From: Isoetes taiwanensis | Taxonomy: Eukaryota > Streptophyta > Lycopodiopsida > Isoetales > Isoetaceae | Direction of reading: 5' to 3' | Assembly (NCBI GenBank): GCA_021234155.1 | Contig: JAJEKV010000035.1 | Coordinates: forward strand, 7,747,891-7,811,890 | DNA: 64,000 nt | Part shown: in pieces, positions 3,509-43,810 of the stretch | Position numbering within the stretch: position 1 is the first letter of the stretch | How the letters are laid out: every line of letters starts with the position of its first letter | The notes under the pieces: generated by a model | Database searches by the model: none | What the model saw: the letters and a program-made list of their open reading frames with translations, nothing else | Told to the model about the DNA's origin: nothing | Program-made: the position numbers and the translations under genes

Positions 3509-4444
3509 CTAGAGAAAGGGCGATGAGGCTACCATACACCTGCTAGGGTCTGAATAGAGAGCCTTGACCACCTTCCATACCTTCAGGAGACCCTTAAGAA
3601 AAGGCGAAGCATGAGGGAATGGCCGCAAATCCTCAAACAGAGCCCACAGCAACTGAGCCGGAGTTGCTGGCTTCCTAAACACAATAGAGTGGCGAAGCGA
3701 CTGTGCCAACAGAGCCAAACCTGGAGATTGTTGCTCCTGCAACAACTGCCAGATGAATTTTGACACCAGAACCTTCGTGTGCAACGACACATCAAGCATA
3801 CCCAAGCCCCCTGTCTTTCTGGGACGCACACACTTCCACCATGCGACCTTCACTGTAGTCCCCTCCTCATTTCCTCCCCAAACAAAATTGCGAATGGTGT
3901 CATCTAACTCTTTAACCACACTTTCTGGCGCAAGTATACAGGAGGCTGCGTAAACATGAGTGCTATAGAGCACTGACTTGGCTACCAGAATCCTACCAGC
4001 CATGATGAGTTTACTTCCCCTCCACCAGTTCAGATGCTGCTTAAGATTCTGTAATGTCTCCGTCCAAATTGCCCTAGCATTAATGTCCAAGCCAAATGGT
4101 ATGCCTAATAGTTTGGCAGCTGTGTGTGGCGGTGTAAGAGCCCAGGGAAACTGACTCAACCATGCAGGAGGAGGTTCCTTCAGTACCCACATGGCCGAGC
4201 ACTTGGACCAGTTAAGCAAGCATCCCGAAGCTAAAGAAAAGGCATCCAAAATATTCTTGGCTGCCTGGAGATTGGACTCATCTGCATGAACAAAGAGGAA
4301 TGTATCATCCGCAAATTGACTGCAAACCTGTTGCGACCCATCATCCATGCGGAGACCTTGCACCACACTGTCAGCAACTGCGACCTGAAAAAGCTGCGAG
4401 AGAGCTTCTGCCACTATAGTGAACAGAAAGGTGGCCAACGGACA
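3509..4444 (-). pseudogene. LINE reverse transcriptase, C-terminal half
   Basis: This is RNA-templated DNA polymerase for retrotransposition. The frame opens at GCPLATFLF (RT motif 4) and reaches FADD within about 45 residues; FADD is the catalytic YADD-type motif of palm motif 5. A thumb/connection region with conserved WWRG, SKLIMAGR and FVWGG stretches follows, as in plant L1 elements. The endonuclease domain and RT motifs 1-3 are absent. The frame ends near 3509 and coding continues in another frame downstream, so the copy is inactive. No initiator methionine is expected in a truncated copy. Relationship to plant L1 LINEs is clear; the subfamily cannot be named from the sequence alone. 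Confidence 0.85.
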
Positions 4445-4664
4445 TCCTTAACAAGGTGACGGTGCAAACGCACTAATGACCTGTGGTGCAATTGCAGATT
4501 CCTTTTTCAAAAAAACATAAATTCGACAATTTTGACCATTTAAAAAAAAACAAATACATTCCAAATATCGTCAATTCTAAAAGCGAGCGACAGATTTTGT
4601 GTTAAGACACACTAAGAAGATGCACTTTCATACGACACAAAAATACAAAGGGAAGGAAGAATGT

Positions 4665-4678
4665 CTATGCGCGCATAG
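4665..4678. promoter_or_regulatory. 14-bp palindrome CTATGCGCGCATAG, downstream of methyltransferase
   Basis: A perfect copy, extended to 18 bp as GTCTATGCGCGCATAGAC (4663-4680), just past the methyltransferase stop codon. A second perfect copy is in the last intron at 5456-5469, extended to TGCTATGCGCGCATAGCA. Function unknown; see the clustered copies. Confidence 0.7.
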
Positions 4679-4752
4679 ACAACAAAGTTATATTTCAGTA
4701 ATTTAATACAATAATATAGGCACTTAAAAAAATGTCCTTTTTTTAGCACACA

Positions 4753-5425
4753 TTAAATATCAAGAGGAGGATCCTTGTGAACAAGTTCGTCATCAGAATC
4801 TGGAGGAGAGGGAACCTTAGTACAGCTGTCAGGATTAACTTCCTCAGTGTCTGAGGCATCCTTCTCTTCCACAACCTTTTGAAGCTCTTCTACAGGAACA
4901 AGCTCGACGAACTCGGCCGGATCGTTGGTGTTCCCGGTGAGTGGCGGCAAAGGCTCTGAGCTTGAAGCTGCGGGATTACCATCCTTATCCTTAAGGCCAA
5001 CCTCCTGCTTTTCATCTGGCAGGCTGTGCAGAGAACTTATTCTGGATTTTATATAAACCACAGAATCCTTATCAAAATCAATTGCAAGGCAGTTGCGACC
5101 CTTTTTTAAAGCACAAGCCAAGGTGGTCCCTGACCCTGAGAAGGCATCGATGACCCAGTCACCTGGCTGTGAAAACATCTCTAAAAGGGTATTAATAAGC
5201 TGTTGAGGCTTCTGATAAGAATTGACTATATGACCCTGGTGTACTGGGTCTGTTAATTTCCGAATGACTGTTGGGAATTGAAACGCATTACGCAAATCCA
5301 TTCCAGCAGTATTATAGTGCAAAATGCTTCTCTGCCCACCAATGCTGTGGTAACCAATGTGCATCTGTTCCCAAACATTTACAAGCCTTGCACCACCGCC
5401 ATTTCCTCTCACATTCGTCTTCAAC
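4753..5425 (-). CDS. Beta-class DNA methyltransferase, last exon (SAM-binding motif I)
   Basis: This is the last coding exon of a spliced minus-strand gene. It contains DAFSGSGTT at 5122-5148, the S-adenosylmethionine-binding motif I (FxGxG type), preceded by a QKP..LI...L segment and followed by an acidic residue run (AIDFD). This is typical of the N6_N4_Mtase family, which methylates adenine N6 or cytosine N4 in DNA. Motif I lies C-terminal to the catalytic motif in the preceding exon, the order that defines the beta class. After about 130 residues the protein ends in an acidic, low-complexity tail rich in Glu, Asp, Ser and Pro. The acceptor is the AG before 5425, giving a TG/G split codon (Trp) with the upstream exon. 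The open frame has no stops. Units 2 and 3 lack this exon. Confidence 0.8.
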
Positions 5426-5487
5426 CTGCAACCGCAACCAATGAGTTATTGTGTGCTATGCGCGCATAGCAAAAAGAAATAACTTAC

Positions 5488-5921
5488 CAAATGGTTGGCT
5501 CGTAACCAACTTTGCAGTGCTCTCTCATTGCAGCTTGTACCATACCTGCCTGATTACTTGAATGAAAAACTACTATCCTCCAAAGCGGTGCAGTATTTAT
5601 TTTGACGAAACGTCTCAAGAAAGAATCAAATTCAGCATAAGTAAATGGAGAATCATCTCATCGACTATCAGGTAGCTTGAACCCATAAGGAATATCAGCA
5701 ATACACAACGAATAATTGCCAGGTTTCAACGTATGGTCAAGTTTGACACAATTTCCATGATATATCTGGTACAAACAATTCTGGCCAAACATGTCAAACC
5801 TTTCAAATTCTGTTGGTACAAAACTTTGCTCAGCTTATTCCTTCTTCTTTAGCTTGGCGCGCTCTTCCTTAGCAAGTCTAACCATGTTAAGAAACCCTGG
5901 CGGCATCGGGTCCTTCTTTTT
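5488..5921 (-). CDS. Beta-class DNA methyltransferase, catalytic exon (motif IV DIPY), two in-frame stops
   Basis: This exon is bounded by a good acceptor (TTTTAG before 5921) and donor (GTAAGTT after 5488). Its frame reads CIADIPYGF at about 5679-5702; DIPY fits the [DNS][PI]P[YFW] catalytic motif IV of amino-methyltransferases. The reading frame joins the downstream motif I exon in phase. Two stops interrupt it: a TAA near 5842, after a lysine-rich stretch, and a TGA near 5662, shortly after DIPYGF. Either the gene is dead or these are consensus errors, since the window shows many errors at CTG/CAG sites. The tandem repeat boundary at 5880 falls inside this exon. Known family members with this domain order are mostly bacterial and phage enzymes. 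Confidence 0.75.
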
Positions 5922-5980
5922 CTAAAACCACAGAACACAGCTTTAGTAAGAACAAGAAGACGAAAGTGCAAAGTGTCTTC

Positions 5981-6149
5981 CTATGCGCGCATAGCAACAC
6001 AGTAACGAACTTCTTGTGGTGCTATGCGCGGATAGCCACACAACAAGAAAACAGCTTTAGTAAGAAGAAGAAAACAAAAGTTCCGAGTGTTAGCCTATGC
6101 GCGCATAGCACCACAGTAACGGACTTCTTGTAGTGCTATGTGCGCATAG
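5981..6149. promoter_or_regulatory. Two pairs of 14-bp palindromes in an intron, 41-bp spacing
   Basis: Sites start at 5981, 6022 (variant GCGCGGATAG), 6095 and 6136 (variant CTATGTGCGC). The start-to-start distance is 41 bp within each pair. They lie in the intron between the last ParB-side exon and the catalytic methyltransferase exon. An isolated half-degraded copy is at 6691-6704 in another intron. None is in a coding exon. Confidence 0.7.
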
Positions 6150-6939
6150 GCACACAACAAGATAAGTAGGGGGAATAACAAAATTTACCAAGTTCGTGAA
6201 ATTCGAAGCGTATTGGTTTATCTTTTCACCCGACGACCATGTAGGGTATAATTCTTTTAACTTTTTCCCATGTGTCACAGTTAAGGTGGACCATGAGTTT
6301 TCTTGACAGAGTGCACAATCCTTTTGGTGCAAAAAGTAAGGAGTCTAAAAAAAAACTGGAACGCAAACTACCAACAAGAAGCGGCTAGTGTTTTGGATCA
6401 CGAATTTAACTTCTTGTTTGAATTCACCCCCGCATCTCTTCCAAGGTAAAGTGGCCATTGACCACCTTCCGCAGCACCTCACAAACGTTTTACGTATTTT
6501 TAAACCACGCATTTCCCTCGGACCATGATACCCATGTCCTTCGTTTTTGCGAGGTTCAGTTTTTTTTTTGGATCCTTCACCTTTCCTTTGGATTTCAGTA
6601 TACCCTCAGCAAACATATCAAAAAAAATTTCTTGAAGTTCCCAGACCTAAAAAGGAACAGGAAAGAAATAAAGGTAAGAAAACTGAACAGTTATGCGCGC
6701 ATGGTCAAAGAACTTAGAGAAGAAAGTTATCTTACACGTCCATGCCTAAAAGCTAGTTGGAAGTAGTTGTCGTACTTCACAAGAGATGCTCTGGCATTAG
6801 TGGAGTTGTATGTTAAAGCGGCACTCAGAAAGCACTGCTTCGCTCTTTAAGAGCGGATAAAGGTTTTGATCATCCTTTATATCTTTGTCACCCTTATGCT
6901 CCGACCTAAAAAGCTCGTATTCCTTATACATAAACTTAA

Positions 6940-7056
6940 TTTTTTTTTTTTTGAAGAACTGTGTCAGCAATATATTAAAAGAATGGTAATGTTACAAAGC
7001 AAGTGAGGAGGAAGGAGAACTGCCCCAAAGAGACAGTGATACCTCGACACTCCACA
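6940..7056 (-). repeat. LINE-type 3' tail inserted in the ParB gene, unit 1
   Basis: A 13-nt poly(T) run is followed by TTGAAGAACTGTG and AATATATTAAA. This resembles the end of the LINE at 2593 (poly(T), then GAAGGAT and AATATATTAAA). I read it as a very short 3'-end insertion of a related LINE or SINE, minus orientation, between two exons of the ParB-like gene. The same tail is at the same place in all three units, so it predates the tandem duplication. Confidence 0.6.
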
Positions 7057-8511
7057 ACAAGCGCAACTCTATCTTTGTATAAACCGGCTCATCCGATATT
7101 CATTGTCCACATTGTGGCTCATAGCAAGCAACTTGGCTTCAGAGTCGATTGACACCCACGTAAATAAATGCAAATATTTGAGAGAAGCGGTGTTCTTTAG
7201 TTTCTTTATGAAGCTGCCTCCTCGCTTTAAAGCTTTGAGTGCCACCCAAAACAAAATACACCGTAGCTTTCATCCTCTTCCTTTACAAACAAATCCCTTT
7301 CCGCTTTGGGAAGGGTCAACAATCTAAATGTGTGGTCTGTCAGGCTGCATTTGGTACGTCCCTTATCGCGTTCCTTAAGAGCAAACAAATGACCAGAGTA
7401 AATTTTTCTCACCTGTAAAGGTCTCTCACCAGACTCATCCTTTGGGCACAACTTAACACAATCAACCTGCAGGTGCATGATCCTAGGCACACGACATCTC
7501 AGCTCAATTTCTTCGAGCTTCCTAGAAGCCATGTCGTTTTCCTTACTGGCAATCCTTGTACCCGGTGCTGGAGGCAAAACTACCTTAGTGGCTTTTTTTG
7601 ATGCCTTGCTAGTTGGTGGAGCAGTGTCAGTCACCAGGCCTGCCTTGTAATAATTTCTTTTGGCTTTCTTTTTGCTTGGCCTCTCCATCACTTCAACCTC
7701 AAACTCTTCCTCTTCAGATTCGGGATCCGAAGGTTCATCTTCATCCACTGTTGCCACCTCAACAGTATCTGAGATTCTGGGGATGATTAGCTTGGCAACT
7801 TGAGGCATGGCATCCTTCAGCAGCTTAGCAAGAGGTGCGCTAGAACTTAACAGAGGATTAGTATAGAAACAAGATCCTACAAACAAAACCTATGATGTCA
7901 TAGACCAAACATATTAGTAAAGTCTTCTCAAGATAAGGGAAAATAACACTTACAATTTTACTCTTTATTCTTGCCTGAATGTAGCCTTGCATATCTTCTG
8001 GAGAAGACAAATTCAGCTTAAAAAATGAACTATCCACAGAATATACATGTTCACTGCCCTTGGTGGTGGTTGTGCACTTGATGTGGAACATACCAAACAG
8101 TTCAGCATCCACGAGCCTGCCACATCTTCTGAAGCTTTCTAGGTCTTGTGTTTGCTTGCCGGTCTCAGAACAAATGTACAAATACAAAAGCTAGCTTGAT
8201 TCTTTGGATCACGGTACCCTCGACAAGCAACCACTGCTGATCCTTACAAAAATAGGAGCCATCTTCGGCCTCCTGAAATTCTTCAGCGACTTGGAGCCGA
8301 GGCGCATCGACTCTTGTCCTTCGTCGTCCTCCCTCTTCCGGTCGCCTTTGCGGGAGGATCCACCTTCATCATCCTGGCTACCCCGTGCAAGGCTTCTCTT
8401 CTTACTGAAATATTAAGAACAGTAAAGTATTAAAACATCGTTTGCCAACCAATTCAGAAAATCTTATCCCCAATAGTGATATAGGCATACTACAAAAGAA
8501 GAGCTTTGAGC

Positions 8512-8736
8512 CCATGCGCGCATAGGCGACCTTCAATAAAAGTATTATGCCCATGCGCGCATAGGATCAGATTAAAAAAAAGGCTGAAGCCCATGCGCGC
8601 ATAGTCAAGCTTGAGAAAAAAAGCTTTGTGTCTATGCGCGCATAGGCAAAGCTTAAGAAAAAAGATTTGTGTCTATGCGCGCATAGGCTAAGCAAGGACA
8701 AGCACTAAAAAAACCTTTGTTCCCATGCGCTCATAG
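8512..8736. promoter_or_regulatory. Array of six 14-bp palindromes at ~40-bp period, intron 1, unit 1
   Basis: CCATGCGCGCATAG or CTATGCGCGCATAG begin at 8512, 8551, 8591, 8632, 8673 and 8723 (the last with GCGCTCAT). The intervals are 39, 40, 41, 41 and 50 bp. Spacers are AT-rich with weak similarity (AAAAAA..., AAGCTT), whereas the palindromes are nearly invariant. The array lies in intron 1 of the ParB-methyltransferase gene, immediately downstream of its start codon. Phased palindromes of this kind are typical of sites bound by a dimeric protein; which protein is not shown by the sequence. Confidence 0.8.
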
Positions 8737-8935
8737 ACAAACCCAATCACAAAATGACCTAAAACAAACAAAACATATCTAGAACACAGGAAGAAGGCCG
8801 GAAATACTTAAGAAATTGACATTTTTAATCGTTTTGGAGGCAGCCTAATTAAGCAAACAATGCACAAAAAAAAAAAAAACAAAAGTGAGCTAATTAACTA
8901 GCAGCTAAGATCTTGACGTACCTTCCACCTGCCAT

Positions 8936-9590
8936 TTGCCGCGAGTCTATGCAGCTTCTTATAGACTTTGATATGTAAAAAAAGTGGAGTGAGTGTGAAG
9001 GCGGAGGTCGAGCGCCCAGGAGCTTCGGTCTGTATGCAGAAATGTGCGCCCTTTTTCCCTATTTATTGTCTATGTTAGTACTTGGATATTTTCTATGAGA
9101 TTATACATGAAGAGTGTAGCGTGTCATTTCATGCGATCCTTTATGGAGTGTCAAGCCCACACAAAGTCTCTTCGTATTTCCCGCTCTTCCTTTACAGTTG
9201 TTTATCTTATCTTGTCTTCCGTCGCTTGAGCTATAGACTTTATTATTACGTCTTCCCTGTGCTCAAGTAGGTAACATGCTTATCTCTCACAGTAATTTAT
9301 GACATCTTGTCTATGCGCGCATGGGCAATATGAGTTCATCTTACACCCGGGCTATGCGCGCATAGGCAAGCTGCTACTAATACTATTTTAATTAGTTAGT
9401 GTACTTCCTTACTTAGTACATGCACAGTAGGTGTGGTGCATGTCTGTTTTTGAGTACAGGTCTTTGTCCATTTGCAGCATGGACGGCAGCCACTCAAGAA
9501 AAAGTTTTTTATCTTCGCCTGCGAATCTTTCATTATTGCCTCGAGCAGGTTCAACGCACCCACACAAAGCAGTGAAGACAAAGATTTACG
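8936..9590. other. Intergenic region between the divergent gene groups, unit 1
   Basis: This separates the ParB-methyltransferase start (minus, 8935) from the plus-strand genes and should hold both promoters. It contains two palindromes 41 bp apart (9311 and 9352). A loose inverted pair AGTCTAT...ATAGACT around 8944-8967, just upstream of the start codon, resembles the outer halves of the palindrome. No convincing TATA box at a sensible distance was identified. Confidence 0.55.
9311..9365. promoter_or_regulatory. Pair of 14-bp palindromes between divergent genes, unit 1
   Basis: Sites at 9311-9324 (CTATGCGCGCATGG, one arm altered) and 9352-9365 (perfect), start-to-start 41 bp, the same phasing as the intron 1 array and the intron pairs. 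Confidence 0.7.
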
Positions 9591-10355
9591 TGATAGTCCA
9601 TCTGGAAGCTTTGTTTCTCCGTCGCCAATACACTTAATGCGCGGGTCTACCTCCTTTCAAACTCCCGGCTAACACACGCGTTCTCTGGCGTTCCCTCGTG
9701 TTTAGAACACCATCTCCCTCACTCCGACAAAGGCGTTTCCTCGGCCTCACCTACTCACACCACCCACTCAATTTTTGAAACTCCTTCACCTCTCAGGGGA
9801 ATTGCACCGTTCGTTTGCAAAACATAATAGATTCTGCAGAGAGACCTCTCCAGCGTGCAAAAGCCCCCTCGTTAACCCAAAGGGTCGCTGAGGATGACCT
9901 ACAAATGTTAAGGAGGAAGTCTAGAACATTGTTTCCATGTTCCTCGGTTGAGAGCGAGAAGGTTAACGACACAACTATTGAAGACGAGCCTGTTCGTACT
10001 CCAGAAAGACCTATCATAGGCTCCAGCCAGAACAACAGCCCGCAGAGCTTTCGACTTAGAGAAATCCATACAGCAGTGCAAAGAGATTTAAGAGGGACCC
10101 TACAGTAAGGGCATTTAGGACAGTTTTGCGAAATCAGTTAATGGGACTAACTTACATGAGGCAGCTGAGGCGTCTGGCTTGTTGTCAAAAGAAGTGTATA
10201 ATGAACTTCCCTTTTTCGTCCTTAAGGCAAACAAGACAATCCTTCTTGTCAATGTCTAAAGGTGACCAGGAATCCTACCTAGCATATCACGTGAGGCCTG
10301 AATTCTGAGGCAAAAAGAGGCACTTGTGTGAAGTGAACAAAGCTTCTTTTGGAGG
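9590..10355 (+). pseudogene. Ser/Pro-rich ORF of the transposase strand, unit 1 (frameshifted)
   Basis: This is the unit 1 copy of the ORF that is intact at 18443-18964. The frame is broken around 9660-9810, each break at a CTG/CAG-rich spot, and open again at 9815-10108. Beyond 10108 coding potential continues in other frames up to a good donor (TTTGGAG before GTAAGC at about 10350). It may therefore be one or more exons of a longer transcript leading into the transposase, or a second element gene. I recognise no domain. Confidence 0.45.
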
Positions 10356-10399
10356 TAAGCTTTAGGCTTAGATCAATTATATCTTTACAAAGCTAGGGC

Positions 10400-12924
10400 T
10401 TGAATGCATGCCATCTTCCTCTGGTAACTAGATTTAGGAAGCTAGATTTAGGAAGCTGCTTTTCCAATTCTTTATGTAAAATGAATCTTAGAGGGAACCG
10501 CCATGTTGCTTTCCCTCCAAATAGCAATCCTGAAGTCATTGTTGCTAATGATCCATCTCCTCGTCTTTCTAAAAAGAGTAGATCTGCCAGACCCATTATT
10601 TCTGCCCAAAAGAAATCTCAAGCTGGAAAAAAGCTTGTTAGAGGACCTGCAAGGGGTTCATGGACTATGGACGCTTTGGAATCTGCTATAGAGTCCATAG
10701 AAGATGGTGTCTTTTCCATCAGAAAAGCAGGTATGCACTATGGTATTCCCCAAACCACTCTTAGAAACCATCTCTACGGCAAATCCAAAAGTAAATTTGG
10801 AAGTCTTCCCAAAGCTTTAACTGTTGATGAAGAGAAATATCTTGTTGAATGGGCTTTACAACTTGCTGATGAAGGACGTGCTGTTAACTTGGATATAATG
10901 AAGCAAAAGGTTGCTGAGATGACAATCAATAGAAGTACATGCTTCAAGAATGGGTTACCTGGCAGGAAATGGTGGAAACATTTCAGAGGTAGGCATCCGG
11001 AAATCTCTTTTCGGACTTCCCAATGCATTGAATTGCAAAGGGTCAAGGCAATGTCCACTTCCAACCTTGAAAATTTCTATTCCACACTTAGATCAGTTTA
11101 TGATCAGCACAATTTTGATGCCTCTAGAATCTGGAACTGTGATGAGTCAGGGGTTCAAGCAGGTTGTAGGACTGGAATGAGAGTTATTGCAAGAAAAGGG
11201 ATGAAGAATGTTACTGAACAAATTCCTCTGACGGGGAATGGATGACGGTACTGGTCTGTGTTAATGCAGCAGGTTATATACTTCATTCCTTTATGCCTTT
11301 TGTTTCAGAATTATGCTTAATTGACTAACATTATCTGTTTGCATTTCTAGGTACACTATTTGAAGCTTGGCTTGATCATTTCAAGAACAATGTTCCTGGA
11401 GGAGTCAGCAACCCATCTTCTCATTTGCGATGGAAATGGCAGCCATGTGAACATAGCATCCATATTGAAGGCAAGAGAAATTGGATTACAAATAGTCCAA
11501 TTACCTCCCCATACATCCCATAAGTTGCAACCTTTGGATATCTCCTGTTGTCGTCCATTCAAATTAGATTTTAGGAAATTAAGAGCACAATTTATGCATA
11601 GTAGATATGGAGTTAAGCCTACAAAGGAGGATCTCACTACTATTGTATCTAATTCTTTATGTCAAGCTCTTACTCCTAATAATATCGTCTTTGGATTTAA
11701 ACCGGCATTTGGCCTAGAGAATCTCAAGGGTTGACTGAAGCTTTAGCAGATAATATGGAAGCTGAGAGATTGGCTACAGCAGGTAACATGCTCTAATTAT
11801 TTGCTTTGCATGCTCTAATTATTTGCTTTGTTGAATATTGATCTATTTGATTAGTATAATATGATGAAGTTTGTTTTAATATTACCGTATATTTGATTGC
11901 TGCAGCTAGAGTTGCTCCTAGTGCAAATGATAGTAATGCAAGTGGTAATGTAGATGCAACACATGAAGAGGATGGAGGAAATGCGCTTGATGGAGAGGCT
12001 GGTACGTATAGAGCATGATGGAGATGTTACTGCAGAGAATGACCTAGCAGCTTTAGCAAATGCTGCAGCAAGGCAAGTTGCAAGAGATGCTCCCTCTACA
12101 AGTATTGGCCCTGTTACAAGTACCATCCCTTCTAATAGTACTGCAGCACCTTCAACCATTAAGATTAAACCCAAGAGAGGCAAAGTGCCTGAAAGTCTGA
12201 AGGGTAAACTATTAGTAACAGGTGATGAGATGGTTAGTGCAAAATTGGAGCATCAGAGGCAATGTGAGGAGGCAGCTATATATAGGATCAGACATGAACA
12301 GTTGGACGAGAAGAAAAAAATTCAAGCTCAGAGGAAGGAAGTTAGAGAAGCAGAAAAGAAGAGAAGGGAGGAGAATAAAAAAAGGAAAGAAGAGAAGAAG
12401 GCTGCATTAGAGAAGGCAGCATTAGAGAAGGAGAAGGCTAAGGAGAAGGCTATTTTGGAGAATTGCTCTGAAACATCTAGGCCCAAAAGAGCTCGAAAAA
12501 AGACTCAAAAAATGATTGAATATGAAGAGGAAGAATTGGATGAAGACGGCATCATCTTTGCAGGTAATGAGGAGGTTGGAAATAAGAACTCGCCTTTTAT
12601 ACAAAATTCAGAAGTGCAGGTACAAGAAGGAGGCGCATCAGAGGACATTTCATCAAGTCAAGGGTTAGACCTGTTTGTTGAAATGCCAATGCTTGATAGA
12701 GATAATGTTAATATTGTTGATGGTGATGCTTTGCCTTGTAGTCATGAAAATAATCACTTGAGTTCAGGAATGAAAACTGCAAGAAAAAGAGAAAGCTAGA
12801 AAGTCTTCAATTATCATCTGATTCTGATTCAGATGATTCAAATTTATTCGGAAAAAGAGTTAAAGCATTGGATGATGTATATAGAGAAGAAGCAAATGCA
12901 TTTCTTCAAAGTATAGGATTATAA
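10400..12924 (+). pseudogene. Pogo/Tigger-like transposase (CENP-B/jerky type), unit 1, disrupted
   Basis: This catalyses cut-and-paste transposition. In order it shows a Pipsqueak-type helix-turn-helix (WTMDALESAIESIEDG...FSIRKAG..YGIPQTTLRNHL), a CENP-B-type DNA-binding region (LTVDEEKYLVEWALQLADEG...NGLPGRKWWKHF), then the DDE_1 catalytic domain. The first Asp is in NCDESG, the second in LLICDG and the third in LQPLD. An intron ends at TTTCTAG (about 11350), another runs from about 11784 to 11905, and the last exon encodes a lysine/glutamate-rich coiled-coil-like tail (EKKRREENKKRKEEKK). Breaks: a frameshift at about 11230, a small deletion near 11407, a mutated residue after the second Asp (DGNGSH for DGHDSH in unit 3), and a 4-nt scar at 12005. 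Stop at 12924 if the last frame is used. Confidence 0.8.
12002..12008. other. Transposon excision footprint in the transposase gene (GTA-C-GTA)
   Basis: Unit 3 carries the left end of a CACTA-like element directly after GTA (45459-45461), and unit 2 has its right end directly before GTA (36570-36572). At this same position unit 1 reads GTA C GTA, four extra nucleotides. Removing them restores an open frame joining the upstream exon (GGNALDGEAG) to the downstream part (IEHDGDVTAEN). A duplicated target plus one leftover base is the classic scar of cut-and-paste excision. Confidence 0.75.
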
Positions 12925-14734: not shown

Positions 14735-14776
14735 AACCATGTTAAGAAACCCTGGCGGCATCGGGTCCTTCTTTTT
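14528..14776 (-). CDS. Chimeric ORF across the unit 1/unit 2 junction
   Basis: The start of the methyltransferase exon (KKKDPMPPGFLNM, acceptor before 14776) runs in frame through the junction at 14735 into right-tail sequence of unit 1 (VSYNVLANKRDSK...) and stops near 14528. The product of unit 2's ParB-like gene would therefore end with about 70 unrelated residues instead of the methyltransferase domain. The same fusion occurs at 39100-39345. No evidence of expression. Confidence 0.5.
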   Translation of the reverse strand, partial: KKKDPMPPGFLNMVSYNVLANKRDSKFLTKVRHFGMASALACRSLVLMASMPTMISDQRLFARTIQLISSRSSTNLDNRSEV

Positions 14777-14835
14777 CTAAAACCACAGAACACAGCTTTA
14801 GTAAGAACAAGAAGACGAAAGTGCAAAGTGTCTTC

Positions 14836-15005
14836 CTATGCGCGCATAGCAACACAGTAACGAACTTCTTGTGGTGCTATGCGCGGATAGCCACAACAAC
14901 AAGAAAACGACTTTTAGTAAGAAGAAGAAAACAAAGTTTAAAGTGTTAGCCTATGCGCGCATAGCACCACAGTAACGGACTTCTTGTAGTGCTATGTGCG
15001 CATAG
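14836..15005. promoter_or_regulatory. Two pairs of 14-bp palindromes, unit 2
   Basis: Starts at 14836, 14877 (GCGCGGATAG variant), 14951 and 14992 (TGTGCGC variant): 41 bp within each pair, as in unit 1. An additional degraded site is at 15546-15559. Confidence 0.7.
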
Positions 15006-15044
15006 GCACACAACAAGATAAGTAGGGGGAATAACAAAATTTAC

Positions 15045-17778
15045 CAAGTTCGTGAAATTCGAAGCGTATTGGTTTATCTTTTCACCCGACGACCATGTAG
15101 GGTATAATTCTTTTAACTTTTTCCCATGTGTCACAGTTAAGGTGGACCATGAGTTGCTGCTGACAGAGTGCACAATCCTTTTGGCTGCAAAAGTAAGGAG
15201 TCTTAAAAAACTCTGGAACGCAAACTACCAACAAGAACTGGCTAGTGTTTTGGATCACGAATTTAACTTACTGTTTGAATTCACCCTGCATCTCTTCCAA
15301 GGTAAAGTGGCCATTGACCACCTTCTGCAGCACCTCACAAACGTTTTCTGTATTTTTTAAACCCTGCATTTCCCTCCAGACCATGATACCCATGTCCTTC
15401 TGTTTTGCAGGTTTTTTTTTTTTTGGATCCTTCACCTTTCCTTTGGATTTCAGTATACCCTCAGCAAACATATCAAAAAAAAATTCTTGAAGTTCCCAGA
15501 CCTAAAAAGGAACAGGAAAGAAATAAAGGTAAGAAAACTGAACAGTTATGCGCGCATGGTCAAAGAACTTGGAGAAGAAAGTTATCTTACACGTCCATGC
15601 CTAAAAGCTAGTTGGAAGTAGTTGTCGTACTTCACAAGAGATGCTCTGGCATTAGTGGAGTTGTATGTTAAGCAGCACTCTGTAGCACACTGCTCTTTAA
15701 GAGCCAGATAAAGGTTTTGATCATCCTTTATATCTTTGTCACCCTTATGCTCCGACCTAAAAAGCTCGTATTCCTTATACATAAACTTAATTTTTTTTTT
15801 TTTGAAGAACTGTGTCAGCAATATATTAAAAGAATGGTAATGTTACAAAGCAAGTGAGGAGGAAGGAGAACTGCCCCAAAGAGACAGTGATACCTCGACA
15901 CTCCACAACAACTGCAACTCTACTGCTGTACAAACTGGCTCATCCGATATTCATTGTCCACATTGTGGCTCATAGCAAGCAACTTGGCTTCAGAGTCAGT
16001 GACACCCACGTAAATAAATGCAAATATTTGAGAGAAGCAGTGTTCTTTAGTTTCTTTATGAAGCTGCCTCCTCGCCTTAAAGCTTTGAGTGCCACCCAAA
16101 ACAAAATACCTGTAGCTTTCATCCTCTTCCTTTACAAACAAATCCCTTTCCGTGCACTGGGAAGGGTCAACAATGCAAATGTGCGGTGCTGTAGCTGCAT
16201 TTGGTCTGTCCCTTATGCGTTCCTTAAGAGCAAACAAATGACCAGAGTAAATTTTTCTCACCTGTAAAGGTCTCTCACCAGACTCATCCTTTGGGCACAA
16301 CTTAACACAATCAACCTGCAGGTGCATGATCCTAGGCACACGACATCTCAGCTCAATTTCTTCGAGCTTCCTAGAAGCCATGTCGTTTTCCTTACTGGCA
16401 ATCCTTGTACCCGGTGCTGGAGGCAAAACTACCTTAGTGGCTTTTTTTGATGCCTTGCTAGTTGGTGGAGCAGTGTCAGTCACCAGGCCTGCCTTGTAAT
16501 AATTTCTTTTGGCTTTCTTTTTGCTTGGCCTCTCCATCACTTCAACCTCAAACTCTTCCTCTTCAGATTCGGGATCCGAAGGTTCATCTTCATCCACTGT
16601 TGCCACCTCAACAGTATCTGAGATTCTGGGGATGATTAGCTTGGCAACTTGAGGCATGGCATCCTTCAGCAGCTTAGCAAGAGGTGCGCTAGAACTTAAC
16701 AGAGGATTAGTATAGAAACAAGATCCTACAAACAAAACCTATGATGTCATAGACCAAACATATTAGTAAAGTCTTCTCGTGCAGGAAAATAACACTTACA
16801 ATTTTACTCTTTATTCTTGCCTGAATGTAGCCTTGCATATCTTCTGGAGAAGACAAATTCAGCTTAAAAAATGAACTATCCACAGAATATACATGTTCAC
16901 TGCCCTTGGTGGTGGTTGTGCACTTGATGTGGAACATACCAAACAGTTCAGCATCCACGAGCCTGCCACATCTTCTGAAGCTTTCTAGGTCTTGTGTTTG
17001 CTTGCCGGTCTCAGAACAAATGTACAAATACAAAAACTGCGCAGTTGCTGGATCACAGGTACCCCTGACAAGCAACCACTGCTGATCCTTACAAAAATAG
17101 GAGCCATCTTCGGCCTCCTGAAATTGCTGCTGACTTGGAGCCAGAACTGCATCCTGACTCTTGTCCTTCATCGTCCTCCTCTTCCTGGCTGCCTTCTGGG
17201 AGGATCCACCTTCATCATCCTGGCTACCCCGTGCAAGGCTTCTCTTCTTACTGAAATATTAAGAACAGTAAAGTATTAAAACATCGTTTGCCAACCAATT
17301 CAGAAAATCTTATCCCCAATAGTGATATAGGCATACTACAAAAGAAGAGCTTTGAGCCCATGCGCGCATAGGCGACCTTCAATAAAAGTATTATGCCCAT
17401 GCGCGCATAGGATCAGATTAAAAAAAAGGCTGAAGCCCATGCGCGCATAGTCAAGCTTGAGAAAAAAAGCTTTGTGTCTATGCGCGCATAGGCAAAGCTT
17501 AAGAAAAAAGATTTGTGTCTATATGGCAAGATAGGCTAAGCAAGGACAAGCACTAAAAAAAACCTTTGTTCCCATGCGCTCATAGACAAACCCAATCACA
17601 AAATGACCTAAAACAAACAAAACATATCTAGAACATTGGGAAGAAGGCCGGAAATACTTAAGAAATTGACATTTTTAATCATTTTGGAGGCAGCCTAATT
17701 AAGCAAACAATGCACAAAAAAAAAAACAAAAGTGAGCTAATTAACTAGCTAAGATCTTGACGTACCTTCCACCGCCAT
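15045..17778 (-). CDS. ParB-like domain protein, unit 2 (best copy), methyltransferase domain lost
   Basis: Exons on the minus strand: 17766-17778 (start codon), 16800-17250, about 15920-16738, 15591 to about 15785, 15272-15501, 15045 to about 15180, then the chimeric exon at 14776. Several junctions have good GT/AG sites and matching phase. Exon 2 encodes an unrecognised N-terminal region (SYFCKDQQWLLVRG, MFHIKCTT). Exon 3 has an acidic run (PESEEEEFEVEV) and a lysine cluster (RPSKKKAKRN), then the ParB-like part: RKIYSGHLFALKERI, YFVLGGTQSFKARRQL and FAFIYVGVTDSEAKLL.. followed by NVDNE. These match the ParB N-terminal pattern of GxxRxxAxxxL followed by an aliphatic strand, an (E/D)A helix and N(v)xxE. 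In prokaryotes this domain is commonly fused to beta-class methyltransferases. The start exon has 13 nt against 14 in units 1 and 3, which would shift the frame. The exon 3/4 junction is uncertain because of the LINE tail. Confidence 0.6.
15791..15905 (-). repeat. LINE-type 3' tail, unit 2
   Basis: Same insertion as at 6940 in unit 1: a 13-nt poly(T) run, then GAAGAACTGTG and AATATATTAAA. It lies directly next to the exon beginning FMYKEYEL, so it may have altered splicing there. Confidence 0.6.
17358..17585. promoter_or_regulatory. Array of palindromes, intron 1, unit 2
   Basis: Starts at 17358, 17397, 17437, 17478, 17519 and 17572, the same order and near-identical spacing as unit 1. The fifth site is destroyed (CTATATGGCAAGATAG), showing the position is kept by descent while this copy has lost its symmetry. 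Confidence 0.75.
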
Positions 17779-18155
17779 TTTGCATGAAGTCTATGCAGAC
17801 TTCTTATAGACTTTGATATGTAAAAAAAGTGGAGTGAGTGTGAAGGCAGAGGTCGAGCGCCCAGGAGCTTCGGTCTATATGCAGAAATGTGCGCCCTTTT
17901 TCCCTATTTATTGTCTATGTTAGTACTTGGATATTTTCTATGAGATTATACATGAAGAGTGTAGCGTGTCATTTCATGCGATCCTTTATGGAGTGTCAAG
18001 CCCACACAAAGTCTCTTCGTATTTCCCGCTCTTCCTTTACAGTTGTTTATCTTATCTTGTCTTCCGTCGCTTGAGCTATAGACTTTATTATTACGTCTTC
18101 CCTGTGCTCAAGTAGGTAACATGCTTATCTCTCACAGTAATTTATGACATCTTGT

Positions 18156-18210
18156 CTATGCGCGCATGGGCAATATGAGTTCATCTTACACCCGGGCTAT
18201 GCGCGCATAG
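18156..18210. promoter_or_regulatory. Pair of palindromes between divergent genes, unit 2
   Basis: Sites at 18156-18169 and 18197-18210, 41 bp apart, matching 9311/9352 in unit 1. Confidence 0.7.
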
Positions 18211-18442
18211 GCAAGCTGCTACTAATACTATTTTAATTAGTTAGTGTACTTCCTTACTTAGTACATGCACAGTAGGTGTGGTGCATGTCTGTTTTTGAGT
18301 ACAGGTCTTTGTCCATTTGCAGCATGGACGACAGCCACTCAAGAAAAAGTTTTTTATCTTCGCCTGCGAATCTTTCATTATTGCCTCGAGGCAGGTTCAA
18401 CGCACCCACACAAAGCAGTGAAGACAAAGATTTACGTGCATA

Positions 18443-18964
18443 ATGTCCCTTGATAGTCCATCTGGAAGCTTTGTTTCTCCGTCGCCAATACACTTAATGC
18501 GCGGGTCTACCTCCTTTCAAACTCCTTCGCTAACACACGTTCTACAGCGTTCCTCTGTGTTTAGAACACCATCTCCCTCACTCCGACAAGGCGTTTCCTC
18601 GGCCTCACCTACTCACACCACCCACTCAATTTTTGAAACTCCTTCACCTCTACAGGAATTGCACCGTTCGTTGCAAAACATAATAGATTCTGCAGAGAGA
18701 CCTCTCCAGCGTGCAAAAGGCCCCTCGTTAACCCAAAGGGTCGCTGAGGATGACCTACAAATGTTAAGGAGGAAGTCTAGAACATTGTTTCCATGTTCCT
18801 CGGTTGAGAGCGAGAAGGTTAACGATACAACTATTGAAGACGAGCCTGTTCGTACTCCAGAAAGACCTATCATAGGCTCCAGCCAGAACAACAGCCCGCA
18901 GAGCTTTCGACTTAGAGAAATCCATACAGCAGTGCAAAGAGATTTAAGAGGGACCCTACAGTAA
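18443..18964 (+). CDS. Ser/Pro/Thr-rich ORF of unknown function, unit 2
   Basis: An open frame of 173 residues on the transposase strand. The first third repeats a short motif, SFQTPS, VFRTPSPS and IFETPSP (F-x-TPS), in a Ser/Thr/Pro-rich context. The rest is charged and possibly helical (DSAERPLQRAK, RVAEDDLQMLRRKSRTL, FRLREIHTAVQRDLRG). TPS/TPE clusters resemble proline-directed kinase sites, but that is only a composition remark. The frame starts close to an ATG at 18443; whether that is the real start or the ORF is one exon of a longer gene cannot be decided. Other frames directly downstream also look coding (AKSVNGTNLHEAAEASGLLS). The ORF lies between the palindrome pair and the transposase in all three units. 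No family recognised. Confidence 0.5.
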   Translation: MSLDSPSGSFVSPSPIHLMRGSTSFQTPSLTHVLQRSSVFRTPSPSLRQGVSSASPTHTTHSIFETPSPLQELHRSLQNIIDSAERPLQRAKGPSLTQRVAEDDLQMLRRKSRTLFPCSSVESEKVNDTTIEDEPVRTPERPIIGSSQNNSPQSFRLREIHTAVQRDLRGTLQ

Positions 18965-19255
18965 GGGCATTTAGGACAGTTTTGCGAAATCAGTTAATGG
19001 GACTAACTTACATGAGGCAGCTGAGGCGTCTGGCTTGTTGTCAAAAGAAGTGTATAATGAACTTCCCTTTTTCGTCCTTAAGGCAAACAAGACAATCCTT
19101 CTTGTCAATGTCTAAAGGTGACCAGGAATCCTACCTAGCATATCACGTGAGGCCTGAATTCTGAGGCAAAAAGAGGCACTTGTGTGAAGTGAACAAAGCT
19201 TCTTTTGGAGGTAAGCTTTAGGCTTAGATCAATTATATCTTTACAAAGCTAGGGC

Positions 19256-19793
19256 TTGAATGCATGCCATCTTCCTCTGGTAACTAGATTTAGGAAGCTA
19301 GATTTAGGAAGCTGCTTTTCCAATTCATTATGTAAAATGAATCTTAGAGGGAACCGCCATGTTGCTTTCCCTCCAAATAGCAATCCTGAAGTCATTGTTG
19401 CTAATGATCCATCTCCTCGTCTTTCTAAAAAGAGTAGATCCGCTGGACTCCATTATTTGCCCAAAAGAAATCTCAAGCTGGAAAAAAGCTTGTTAGAGGA
19501 CCTGCAAGGGGTTCATGGACTATGGACGCTTTGGAATCTGCTATAGAGTCCATAGAAGATGGTGTCTTTTCCATCAGAAAAGCAGGTATGCACTATGGTA
19601 TTCCCCAAACCACTCTTAGAAACCATCTCTATGGCAAATCCAAAAGTAAATTTGGAAGTCTTCCCAAAGCTTTAACTGTTGATGAAGAGAAATATCTTGT
19701 TGAATGGGCTTTACAACTTGCTGATGAAGGACGTGCTGTTAACTTGGATATAATGAAGCAAAAGGTTGCTGAGATGACAATCAATAGAAGTAC
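19256..19793 (+). pseudogene. Pogo-like transposase, unit 2, truncated by deletion
   Basis: This keeps the Pipsqueak-type helix-turn-helix and the start of the CENP-B-type region (DEEKYLVEWALQLADEG), then breaks off at TCAATAGAAGTAC and passes directly into CACTA-like sequence. A frameshift near 19441-19460 separates the N-terminal ORF (19256-19546) from the one starting 19522. The catalytic domain is gone from this unit apart from the 3' tail exon at 36570. Confidence 0.8.
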
Positions 19794-27500: not shown

Positions 27501-27504
27501 ACTT

Positions 27505-28790: not shown

Positions 28791-28950
28791 TGACATGGCA
28801 TGCCAAGAAAGCAAGGCCAAGTTTTGACTAGGCCAAAAATGAAAAGATGCCCATCTCTGGTCTTTTTATTGGGTGATGTTGGCAAATTTTGGATGACATG
28901 GCTAGATGGTGGTGACATGGACATGATGACTAGGACTCTATGCAAGAAAT
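28790..28950. repeat. Inverted repeat flanking the 0.8-kb repeat block (left arm)
   Basis: CCAAGTGGTGACATGGCATG, a GGTCTTTTTATTGGGTGATG stretch and GGTGACATGG occur here. Their reverse complement occurs at about 34205-34325, and in fuller form at 55285-55425 in unit 3. The arms bracket about 5.3 kb of repeats and sit at the inner edges of both minisatellite blocks, so they may be the ends of an element that inserted into the minisatellite. Confidence 0.6.
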
Positions 28951-35928: not shown

Positions 35929-35929
35929 T

Positions 35930-39303: not shown

Positions 39304-39345
39304 AACCATGTTAAGAAACCCTGGCGGCATCGGGTCCTTCTTTTT
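39100..39345 (-). CDS. Chimeric ORF across the unit 2/unit 3 junction
   Basis: Second copy of the in-frame fusion of the methyltransferase exon start (PPGFLNM) to right-tail sequence (VSYNVLANK...), 76 codons from the PPG start. Its presence at both junctions shows they have one origin. Confidence 0.5.
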   Translation of the reverse strand, partial: KKKDPMPPGFLNMVSYNVLANKRDSKFLTKVRHFGMASALACRSLVLMASMPTMISDQAVAATIQLISSRSSTNLDNRSEV

Positions 39346-39404
39346 CTAAAACCACAGAACACAGCTTTAGTAAGAACAAGAAGACGAAAGTGCAAAGTGT
39401 CTTC

Positions 39405-39573
39405 CTATGCGCGCATAGCAACACAGTAACGAACTTCTTGTGGTGCTATGCGCGGATAGCCACACAACAAGAAAACAGCTTTAGTAAGAAGAAGAAAACA
39501 AAAGTTCCGAGTGTTAGCCTATGCGCGCATAGCACCACAGTAACGGACTTCTTGTAGTGCTATGTGCGCATAG
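39405..39573. promoter_or_regulatory. Two pairs of palindromes, unit 3
   Basis: Starts at 39405, 39446, 39519 and 39560: 41 bp within each pair, as in units 1 and 2. Confidence 0.7.
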
Positions 39574-40372
39574 GCACACAACAAGATAAGTAGGGGGAAT
39601 AACAAAATTTACCAAGTTCGTGAAATTCGAAGCGTATTGGTTTATCTTTTCACCCGACGACCATGTAGGGTATAATTCTTTTAACTTTTTCCCATGTGTC
39701 ACAGTTAAGGTGGACCATGAGTTGCTGCTGACAGAGTGCACAATCCTTTTGGCTGCAAAAGTAAGGAGTCTTAAAAAACTCTGGAACGCAAACTACCAAC
39801 AAGAACTGGCTAGTGTTTTGGATCACGAATTTAACTTACTGTTTGAATTCACCCTGCATCTCTTCCAAGGTAAAGTGGCCATTGACCACCTTCTGCAGCA
39901 CCTCACAAACGTTTTCGTATTTTTTAAAACCCCGCATTTCCCTCCGCACCATGATACCCATGTCCTTCTGCTTTTGCGCTGGTTCGGTTTTTTTTTTTTT
40001 TGGATCCTTCACCTTTCCTTTGATTTCAAAGATACCCTCAAGCAAACATAAAAAAAAAAAAATTCTTGAAGTTCCTGGACCTAAAAGGAGCAGGGAAAGA
40101 AATAAAGGTAAGAAAACTGAACAGTTATGCGCGCATGGTCAAAGAACTTGGAGAAGAAAGTTATCTTACACGTCCATGCCTAAAAGCTAGTTGGAAGTAG
40201 TTGTCGTACTTCACAAGAGATGCTCTGGCATTAGTGGAGTTGTATGTTAAGCAAAGACTCAGAGAAAGCACTCGCTCTTTAAGAGCCAGATAAAGGTTTT
40301 GATCATCCTTTATATCTTTGTCACCCTTATGCTCCGACCTAAAAAGCTCGTATTCCTTATACATAAACTTAA

Positions 40373-40490
40373 TTTTTTTTTTTTTGAAGAACTGTGTCAG
40401 CAATATATTAAAAGAATGGTAATGTTACAAAGCAAGTGAGGAGGAAGGAGAACTGCCCCAAAGAGACAGTGATACCTCGACACTCCACAA
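40373..40490 (-). repeat. LINE-type 3' tail, unit 3
   Basis: Third copy of the tail seen at 6940 and 15791, same position and sequence. Confidence 0.6.
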
Positions 40491-41939
40491 CAACTGCAAC
40501 TCTACTGCTGTACAAACTGGCTCATCCGATATTCATTGTCCACATTGTGGCTCATAGCAAGCAACTTGGCTTCAGAGTCAGTGACACCCACGTAAATAAA
40601 TGCAAATATTTGAGAGAAGCAGTGTTCTTTAGTTTCTTTATGAAGCTGCCTCCTCGCCTTAAAGCTTTGAGTGCCACCCAAAACAAAATACCTGTAGCTT
40701 TCATCCTCTTCCTTTACAAACAAATCCCTTTCCGTGCACTGGGAAGGGTCAACAATGCAAATGTGTGGTTCAGAGTCTGCATTTGGTCTGTCCCTTATGC
40801 GTTCCTTAAGAGCAAACAAATGACCAGAGTAAATTTTTCTCACCTGTAAAGGTCTCTCACCAGACTCATCCTTTGGGCACAACTTAACACAATCAACCTG
40901 CAGGTGCATGATCCTAGGCACACGACATCTCAGCTCAATTTCTTCGAGCTTCCTAGAAGCCATGTCGTTTTCCTTACTGGCAATCCTTGTACCCGGTGCT
41001 GGAGGCAAAACTACCTTAGTGGCTTTTTTTGATGCCTTGCTAGTTGGTGGAGCAGTGTCAGTCACCAGGCCTGCCTTGTAATAATTTCTTTTGGCTTTCT
41101 TTTTGCTTGGCCTCTCCATCACTTCAACCTCAAACTCTTCCTCTTCAGATTCGGGATCCGAAGGTTCATCTTCATCCACTGTTGCCACCTCAACAGTATC
41201 TGAGATTCTGGGGATGATTAGCTTGGCAACTTGAGGCATGGCATCCTTCAGCAGCTTAGCAAGAGGTGCGCTAGAACTTAACAGAGGATTAGTATAGAAA
41301 CAAGATCCTACAAACAAAACCTATGATGTCATAGACCAAACATATTAGTAAAGTCTTCTCGTGCAGGAAAATAACACTTACAATTTTACTCTTTATTCTT
41401 GCCTGAATGTAGCCTTGCATATCTTCTGGAGAAGACAAACTCAGTTCAAAAAAATGAACTATCCACAGAATATACATGTTCACTGCCCTTGGTGGTGGTT
41501 GTGCACTTGATGTGGAACATACCAAACATATCAGCATCCACGAGCCCGCAACATCTTCCGAAGCTTTCCAGGTCTTGTGTTTGCTTGTCTGGCCTTAACA
41601 AATGTACAAATACAAAACTGGCAATTCTGTCGGATCTTGGTACCCCTGACAAGCAACCATTGCTGATCCTTACAAAAATAGGAGCCATCTTCGGCCTCCT
41701 GAAATTGGTGTTGACTTGGAGCCAGAACTGCATCCTGACTCTTGTCTTTCGTCGTCCTCCTCTTCCTGGCTGCCTTCTGAGAAGGGTCCACCTTCATCAT
41801 CCTGGCTACCCCGTGCAAGGCTTCTCTTCTTACTAAAATATTAAGAACAGTAAAGTATTAAAACATCGTTTGCCAACCAATTCAGAAAATCTTATCCCCA
41901 ATAGTGACATAGGCATACTACAAAAGAAAAGCTTTGAGC

Positions 41940-42164
41940 CCATGCGCGCATAGGCGACCTTCAATAAAAGTGTTATGCCCATGCGCGCACAGGATCAGAT
42001 TAAAAAAAAGGCTGAAGCCCATGCGCGCATAGTCAAGCTTGAGAAAAAAAGCTTTGTGTTTATGCACGCATAGGCAAAGCTTAAGAAAAAAGATTTGTGT
42101 CTATGCACGCATAGGCTAAGCAAGGACAAGCACTAAAAAAACCTTTGTTCCCATGCACGCATAG
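41940..42164. promoter_or_regulatory. Array of palindromes, intron 1, unit 3 (partly decayed)
   Basis: Starts at 41940, 41979, 42019, 42060, 42101 and 42151: spacing 39, 40, 41, 41, 50, identical to unit 1. The last three have CACG in place of CGCG at the centre, and the second ends CGCACAG. CG to CA is the change expected from deamination of methylated cytosine. Confidence 0.75.
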
Positions 42165-42731
42165 ATAAACCCAATCACAAAATGACCTAAAACAAACAAA
42201 ACATATCTAGAACATAGGAAGAAGGCCAGAAATACTTAAGAAATTGACATTTTTAATCGTTTTAGAGGCAGCCTAATTAAGCAAATAATGCACAAAAAAA
42301 AAAAAGTGAGCTAATTAACTAGCAGCTAAGATCTTGACGTACCTTCCACCTGCCATTTGCCGCGAGTCTATGCAGCTTCTTATAGACTTCGATATGTAAA
42401 AAAAGCAGAGTGAGTGTGAAGGCAGAGGTCGAGCGCCCAGGAGCTTCGGTCTGTATGCAGAAATGTGCGCCCTTTTTCTCTATTTATTGTCTACGTTAGT
42501 ACTTGGATATTTTCTATGAGATTATACATGAAGAGTGTAGCGTGTCATTTCATGCAATCCTTTATGGAGTGTCAACCCCACACAAAGTCTCTTCGTATTT
42601 CCCGCTCTTCCTTTACAGTTGTTTATCTTATCTTGTCTTCCTTCGCTTGAGCTATAGACTTTATTATTACGTCTTCCCCGTGCTCAAGTAGGTAACAGGT
42701 TTATCTCTCACAGTAATTTATGACATCTTGT

Positions 42732-42786
42732 CTATGCGCGCATGGGCAATAACAGTTCATCTTACACCCGGGCTATGCGCGCATAG
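42732..42786. promoter_or_regulatory. Pair of palindromes between divergent genes, unit 3
   Basis: Sites at 42732 and 42773, 41 bp apart. Confidence 0.7.
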
Positions 42787-43029
42787 GCAAGCTTCTACTA
42801 ATACTATTTTAATTAGTTAGTGTACTTCCTTACTTAGTACATGCACAGTAGGTGTGGTGCATATTTGTTTCTGAGTACAGGTCTTTATCCATTTGTAGCA
42901 TGGACGGCAGCCACTCAAGAAAAAGTTTTTTATCTCTGCCTGCGAATGTTTCATTATTGCCTCGAGGCAGGTTCAGCACAACCACACAAAGCAGTGAAGA
43001 CAAAGATTTACGTGCATACCGGCCCCTTG

Positions 43030-43810
43030 ATAGTCCATCCGAAGCTTTGTTTCTCCGTCGCCAATACACTTAATGCGTGGGTCTACCTCCTTTCAAACTC
43101 CTTCGTCAACACACGTTCTACAGCGTTCCTCTGTGTTTAGAACACCATCTCCCTCACTCCGACAAGGTGTTTCCTCGGCCTCACCTACTCACACCACCCA
43201 CTCAATTTTTGAAACTCCTTCACCTCTACTGTGAATTGTAACCGCTCGTTGCAAAACATAATAGATTCTCAAGTAGAGAGACCTCTCCAAATGCAAAAGG
43301 CCCCTCGTTAACCCAAAGGGTCGCTGAGGATGACCTACAAATGTTAAGGAGGAAGTCTAGAACATTGTTTCCATGTTCCTCGGTTGAGAGCGAGAAGGTT
43401 AACGACACAACTATTGAAGACGAGCCCTGTCAGATACTCGTAAAGACCTATCATAGGCTCCGGCCGTAACAAATGCCCGCAGAGCTTTCGACTTAGAGAA
43501 ATCCATACAGCAGTGCAAAGAGATTTAAGAGGGACCCTACAGTAAGGGCATTTAGGACAGTTTTGCGAAATCGCTTAATGGGACTAACTTACATGAGGCA
43601 AAACCCGAGGCGCCCGCTTGTTGTCAAAAGAAGTGTATAATGAACTTCCCTTTTTCGTCCTTAAGGCAAACAAGACAATCCTTCTTGTCAATGTCTAAAG
43701 GTGACCGGGAATCCTACCTAGCAGCATATCACGTGAGGCCTGAATTCGAGGCAAAAAGAGGCACTTGTGTGAAGTGAACAAAGCTTCTTTTGGAGGTAAG
43801 CTTTTAGGCT
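43030..43810 (+). pseudogene. Ser/Pro-rich ORF, unit 3 (frameshifted)
   Basis: Copy of 18443-18964 with the same F-x-TPS motifs but broken by indels near 43225, 43270 and 43430, mostly at sites that are CTG/CAG in unit 2. It ends at the conserved donor near 43796. Confidence 0.45.

What the first reader, a model, noticed from the sequence alone, without database searches (positions are those of the whole stretch)
4753..12924. A pogo-like transposon that appears to carry a ParB-like/DNA-methyltransferase gene
Seen: a spliced minus-strand gene with a ParB-like region followed by DIPY and then FSGSG motifs, diverging from a plus-strand Pipsqueak/CENP-B/DDE transposase. The two groups travel together in the tandem units, and a private palindrome is spread through both introns and the intergenic region. 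Known: ParB-like domains fused to N6_N4 methyltransferases are common in phages and bacteria; pogo/Tigger elements normally encode only a transposase. Inference: a prokaryote-derived modification enzyme was captured by a eukaryotic DNA transposon, acquired introns, and may mark or protect element DNA. I know of no described plant element with this gene set.
Basis: partly seen in the sequence, partly recalled or inferred. Interest (0 to 1): 0.9.

Follow-up and report, generated by a model that had tools for sequence, protein, structure and literature searches.

The report
Jumping gene carrying a DNA-marking enzyme
The window holds broken copies of a transposon that carries, besides its own transposase, a bacterial-type DNA-methylating enzyme, and branches of this transposon family are studded with their own palindromic DNA 'address' that the enzyme may recognise to mark the transposon's own DNA.

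Summary
The ParB-like/DNA-methyltransferase gene is real and lies in a DNA transposon, but not in the pogo element. Dispersed copies show an ~9-kb element with AACAAGGTGAC... inverted repeats, 4-bp target duplications (20 of 20 TIR pairs examined; mismatched flanks 4 of 380) and two divergent genes: the ParB-methyltransferase and a DUF7869 transposase. In the window it is cut off at 10302, where a pogo fragment follows; that chimera was duplicated locally. Outside the window, 1 of 134 scored ParB loci lies within 10 kb of any of 148 scored pogo hits (both lists capped). A precedent exists: an Ectocarpus Sola1 element carries a ParB-methyltransferase opposite its transposase. Spacings hint at helical phasing. 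Best model, inferred: the enzyme binds and methylates its own element's palindromes, a self-address system comparable to VANDAL/VANC anti-silencing. Methylation, target base and expression are untested.

The parts
4450..10302 (.). Truncated copy of the ParB-methyltransferase/DUF7869 transposon: left terminus present, right part (rest of the transposase gene and right inverted repeat) missing
   Evidence: Shared homology limits in dispersed copies L039, L040, L042, L043
4450..4480 (+). Left terminal inverted repeat AACAAGGTGACGGTGCAAACGCACTAATGAC
   Evidence: exact hit at G000:C1040:7752340
4753..5445 (-). Methyltransferase exon 7 (motif I DAFSGSG), open
   Evidence: Pfam N6_N4_Mtase 1.3e-14
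5490..5921 (-). Methyltransferase exon 6 (motif IV ADIPY at 5699); 2 stops within the match
   Evidence: 94% to L040
6141..6410 (-). Middle exons of the ParB-methyltransferase gene, 1 stop within the match
6730..7859 (-). ParB-like exon (exon 3), matched in separate pieces, frame broken
   Evidence: fold of the L046 homologue
7861..8445 (-). N-terminal exon 2, 3 stops within the match
9431..10302 (+). 5' part of the plus-strand gene that in dispersed copies leads into the DUF7869 transposase; cut at 10302, stops present. That these first exons belong to the transposase gene is inferred from position.
   Evidence: Matches L043/L042 at 61-98%; PF25273 in the downstream exon of L043
4665..9365 (.). 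15 palindrome sites CTATGCGCGCATAG (<=2 mismatches) at 4665, 5456, 5981, 6022, 6095, 6136, 6691, 8512, 8551, 8591, 8632, 8673, 8723, 9311, 9352
10303..12924 (+).
14735..19158 (.). Unit B: further truncated copy lacking the motif-I methyltransferase exon
39304..43752 (.). Unit C: further truncated copy lacking the motif-I methyltransferase exon

Best explanation
SHOWN: a family of ~8-9 kb DNA transposons (inverted repeats starting AACA, 4-bp target duplications) carries two divergent genes, a DUF7869-type transposase and a ParB-fold plus beta-class N6/N4 DNA methyltransferase split into exons, with many copies of a lineage-specific TAT-N6-ATA palindrome. INFERRED: the enzyme is a sequence-specific writer. 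Its ParB-fold part (and/or its target-recognition segment) binds the palindromes of its own lineage and methylates them (6mA or 4mC, symmetric and hence maintainable). The mark keeps the element's promoters and introns accessible or licenses the transposase, in cis and on non-autonomous copies in trans. Lineages diverge by switching palindrome and enzyme specificity together. The window copies are dead, chimeric remains.
Against: No methylation, expression or binding data. The palindromes could be bound by the transposase or a host factor. 3 of 20 diverged loci showed no palindrome in the 1.1-kb piece read (L089, L093, L107) and 5 of the 15 with B showed a single site. L040 lacks a matching duplication. 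L045 has no methyltransferase match yet keeps its palindromes. Palindrome and enzyme clades are matched only through exon-3 identity, with three palindrome types seen, so co-divergence rests on few independent switches. Site spacing could partly reflect tandem duplication.
Confidence: 0.55

Rival explanations
1. The palindromes are sites for the transposase (internal or subterminal enhancers); the ParB-methyltransferase is a passenger or acts elsewhere.
For: Non-autonomous copies keep palindromes, one or two of them inside the retained terminal 330-430 bp, as expected for sites needed in transposition; TnpA-type subterminal motifs exist in CACTA elements (recalled).
Against: In the full copies the sites are mostly internal, in what look like methyltransferase introns, the divergent region and a transposase intron (judged by eye); methyltransferase sequence accompanies the DUF7869 gene in 10 of 11 loci read, all chosen by the ParB exon.
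Confidence: 0.2
2. The palindromes are host-factor binding sites or promoter/enhancer elements exploited by the transposon; the methyltransferase counters host defence generally.
For: Arrays flank the divergent start region.
Against: Three different core sequences in one host for one element family argue for element-encoded specificity; sites also lie in apparent introns.
Confidence: 0.12
3. One reading: a pogo/Tigger transposon captured the methyltransferase.
For: Adjacency in units of the window.
Against: Element boundary at 10302, own transposase, own termini with 4-bp duplications; 1 of 134 scored ParB loci outside the window within 10 kb of any of 148 scored pogo hits, both lists capped.
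Confidence: 0.02
4. The palindrome arrays are neutral tandem-repeat expansions inherited by each lineage.
For: Repeated ~41-bp spacing fits unit duplication; in lineage B the near flanks are conserved too, up to 0.84.
Against: With similar flanks removed, 49, 58 and 23 sites of lineages A, B, C were found by a 10-base seed, which is conserved by construction; the four positions outside the seed that complete the 14-mer are still at 0.84-1.0, while positions further out mostly fall to 0.3-0.6 in A and C. Sites recur in internal DNA of non-autonomous copies without similarity to L042; the three palindrome types share TAT-N6-ATA.
Confidence: 0.1

Closest known systems
Sola1-1_Ec32 of Ectocarpus (PMC12477816; passages read, part of the reference list)
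   Same: DNA transposon with, opposite the transposase, a protein with ParB-like DNA-binding and N4C/N6A DNA methyltransferase domains; the authors already suggest binding and modification of own DNA
   Different: 21.5 kb in a brown alga; the passages seen mention no private palindromes, lineage switching or non-autonomous carriers; its transposase was not compared here
Green and red algal transposons with similar proteins (Iyer 2011; Petroll 2025, known here only as refs 50 and 51 of PMC12477816)
   Same: Similar ParB-methyltransferase proteins reported, according to PMC12477816
   Different: Not read; details unseen
VANDAL/VANC anti-silencing of Arabidopsis (PMC5735166, PMC10398659; abstracts and outlines seen)
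   Same: TE-encoded sequence-specific epigenetic factor; targets are repeats in non-coding TE regions that diverge between related TEs
   Different: The abstracts describe loss of methylation, not writing of a mark, and no ParB or methyltransferase domain
TET/JBP-encoding fungal DNA transposons (PMC12730594; abstract and passages read)
   Same: DNA-modifying enzyme captured by DNA transposons, proposed escape from silencing
   Different: Dioxygenase, not amino-methyltransferase; the passages read describe no private palindromes
Phage ParB-CTPase-N6_N4 methyltransferase fusions (PMC12704722; passages read)
   Same: Same two domain types fused
   Different: Prokaryotic viruses; tblastn of our ParB part (P0004) in 50,697 phage records found nothing at E 10

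Membership tests
Sola1 DNA transposon | 4-bp target site duplication (4-bp TSDs read for Sola2 in passages of PMC3627910; for Sola1 recalled) | tested here: met
   20 of 20 TIR pairs, 2 of 2 lineage B copies; exception L040
Sola1 DNA transposon | Sola1-type transposase sequence | not tested
   No Sola1 reference sequence on hand; transposase is Pfam DUF7869
Sola1 with ParB-methyltransferase (Ectocarpus type) | ParB-like plus N6_N4 methyltransferase gene opposite the transposase | tested here: met
pogo/Tigger (Tc1-mariner) | TA target duplication | tested here: not met
   4-bp duplications of varied sequence
pogo/Tigger (Tc1-mariner) | HTH_Psq/CENP-B + DDE_1 transposase inside the element | tested here: not met
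   Element limits exclude 10397-12924; own transposase DUF7869
beta-class amino DNA methyltransferase | Motif IV (DPPY-like) before motif I (FxGxG); class definition recalled | tested here: met
   ADIPY exon precedes DAFSGSG exon on the coding strand; CcrM best solved relative by sequence
ParB-CTPase fold | Fold match to ParB structures | tested here: met
VANC-like anti-silencing factor | Binding of own motif and loss of silencing marks | not testable with these tools
   Needs bisulfite/ChIP data

The most novel reading that the evidence does not exclude
A eukaryotic transposon family runs a self-identity system: a ParB-fold clamp fused to an amino-methyltransferase reads a lineage-private, helically phased palindromic address (TAT-N6-ATA) and writes 6mA or 4mC on its own and its non-autonomous copies, and new lineages arise by switching the six central bases together with the enzyme.
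Probability: 0.38. Interest if true: 0.88.

Novelty: new variant of a known kind. Interest (0 to 1): 0.68.

Why it matters
It gives the suggestion that algal ParB-methyltransferases mark their own transposons a concrete, testable target: defined palindromes, a genome-wide count for one of them, three candidate specificities in one genome, and derivatives that keep the address. If methylated, this would be a mobile writer of 6mA/4mC with programmed self-specificity in a large eukaryotic genome, a source of sequence-specific amino-methyltransferases, and a second system beside VANDAL/VANC in which an element's target motif and epigenetic factor diverge together.

Tried and rejected
Pogo capture of the methyltransferase: rejected. 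Single-copy host gene: rejected, because the ParB exon has 144 listed matches, three of them in the window (142 of 2512 candidates scored). Viral origin of the ParB part: no relative confirmed in IMG/VR (47 pattern hits) and none in phage records; the methyltransferase part hits 621 phage records, all under 60% identity, the 25 listed at 22-26%, so no donor was identified. Pfam gives no ParB hit and only weak DUF6551 (best 0.03, 3 of 10 members). A protein search with the ParB alignment found three distant proteins (P0007-P0009; only 7992 candidates scored), and the methyltransferase alignment 44, several named as bacterial-type methylases; no source organism was given for the closest ones. 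A simple TIR scan of L045, L046, L047 and L048 found no terminal repeats (in L047 only palindrome sites); homology limits showed both ends for L046 and L048 and one end each for L045 and L047. The genome-wide count of palindrome B could not be obtained.
Full report
What is in the window. Three related units lie at about 4450-12005, 14735-19793 and 39304-45462. Unit A carries a minus-strand methyltransferase exon (N6_N4_Mtase, 1.3e-14) and, further right on the plus strand, HTH_psq/HTH_Tnp_Tc5 and DDE_1 exons of a pogo-like transposase. So the observation starts from real genes.

The methyltransferase belongs to another element. The window lies in a 1.658-Gb assembly of 1110 contigs. The ParB-like exon has 144 listed matches there at 39-100% identity, 142 of 2512 first-look candidates having been scored. 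Six dispersed 10-kb loci (L039-L044) align to unit A only within 4449/4450-10302, and to the corresponding parts of units B and C (matches above 100 bits). Beyond 10302 they continue with a plus-strand gene encoding a DUF7869 domain (E 1e-36 for the L043 exon) and end at a common right end, seen in five of the six. That right part has no match above 100 bits anywhere in the window. The window copy is therefore a truncated element abutting a pogo remnant, and the chimera was duplicated nearby. Only unit A has the motif-I exon; units B and C keep 14 residues of the motif-IV exon. Unit A is disrupted: stops in exons 2 and 6, exon 3 matched only in separate pieces.

It is a transposon. Both ends carry AACAAGGTGACGGTGCAAACGCACTAATGAC in inverted orientation. 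This 31-mer with up to 3 mismatches occurs 208 + 226 times genome-wide, against 0 for the reversed control. Of the 100 hits listed (all exact), 20 form inward-facing pairs within 25 kb. 13 of these enclose a ParB-exon hit (7,998-21,954 bp, typically about 9 kb), six are 2.1-3.0 kb without one, and one is 19 kb without one. All 20 pairs are flanked by perfect 4-bp duplications of varied sequence; mismatched flank pairs agree in 4 of 380 cases. Two of the 20 share both flanks, two others share the left flank, and one (C1056:11.94) sits in a short tandem repeat, so slightly fewer are independent. By eye, L039 and L043 also match and L040 does not. Two copies of a diverged lineage (L046, L048) have AACA-starting termini and 4-bp duplications, CAAT and TAGC.

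The gene pair is conserved. Eleven loci were read, all chosen by the ParB exon: 6 close, 4 diverged (40-54% identity), and L109 at 39%. The DUF7869 gene is present and divergent in 11 of 11, methyltransferase sequence in 10 of 11: L045 has none, L041 keeps only fragments and L109 is degraded. By contrast, outside the window only 1 of 134 scored ParB loci is within 10 kb of any of 148 scored pogo-transposase hits; both lists are capped (142 of 2512 and 150 of 2118 candidates scored).

The palindromes. In lineage A loci (window unit A, L039-L044, L047) CTATGCGCGCATAG occurs 7-23 times per locus as perfect 14-mers, while L045, L046 and L048 have TGTATTCCGGAATACA, 5-7 perfect 16-mers; neither type occurs in the other set with up to 2 mismatches. 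First-order Markov random sequences gave 0 in 40 runs each for L042 (29 observed) and L048 (12 observed). In 20 further loci, 1.1 kb each, B was found in 15 (a single site in 5 of these), A in 1, a third palindrome in 1 (L104: 16 perfect TATAAATTTATA), and none in 3. L109, around the third, carries the same gene pair and 27 sites of GTATAAATTTATAC with up to 2 mismatches. All three types share TAT-N6-ATA. Genome-wide the A 14-mer has 1551 perfect sites against 0 for its reversed control. In L042, judged by eye against the open frames, the sites lie in what look like introns of both genes, in the divergent region and beyond the methyltransferase stop. Among 82 spacings up to 130 bp with dissimilar spacers, from 19 loci, 24 are 40-42 bp and 17 are 28-32 bp; periodicity is strongest near 10.6 bp among 15 periods tried (R 0.48; 0.42 also at 14), so helical phasing is suggestive, not proven. 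With similar flanks removed, sites found by a 10-base seed keep the four further positions of the 14-mer at 0.84-1.0, whereas positions further out mostly fall to 0.3-0.6 in lineages A and C; in lineage B near flanks are also fairly conserved. Five of the six small TIR pairs were fetched (2.5-3.0 kb; the sixth has the same flanks as L110). They share mainly their ends with L042 in blastn, yet each has 6-9 A sites with up to 2 mismatches, most of them outside the shared ends; by eye these five fall into perhaps three families.

How it probably works. Shown: mobility, gene pair, domain types, private palindromes. Inferred: the ParB-methyltransferase recognises its own lineage's palindrome and methylates it, marking the element and its derivatives, with anti-silencing or transposase licensing as the benefit. 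The nearest worked example of a TE-encoded factor with diverging repeat targets in non-coding TE DNA is VANC (abstracts).

What was known. An Ectocarpus Sola1 element carries a ParB-methyltransferase opposite its transposase, and its authors propose self-binding and self-modification, citing green and red algal cases (passages and part of the reference list). Fungal DNA transposons carry TET/JBP enzymes (abstract and passages). I saw no report of private palindromes in such elements; the searches were made, limited to open-licence papers and none of them aimed at palindromes as such, and the two cited algal sources were not read. I do not claim Sola1 membership: the 4-bp duplications agree, the transposase was not compared.

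Noticed in passing
window 27421-36000, 48548-56255, 60051-64000: Large 19-bp-period repeat arrays and ~800-bp repeats lie between and beyond the transposon units.
   Followed up: no
window 3509-4447: Minus-strand ORF resembling a LINE reverse transcriptase (by eye) directly beside the left terminus; similar-looking ORFs flank the element in L040.
   Followed up: no
G000, DDE_1 and pogo exon hits: DDE_1/pogo transposases are a large family of their own (1164 and 2118 first-look candidates), many with long open frames.
   Followed up: partly
P0001, P0007-P0011: Element-type ParB and methyltransferase proteins occur on short contigs of other public data sets (P0011 92% identity over 55% of the query), so related elements may exist elsewhere.
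   Followed up: partly
L109 (C1027:19361900-19369400): Most divergent lineage read, with its own AT-rich palindrome and spacings often near 21, 30 and 42 bp.
   Followed up: partly
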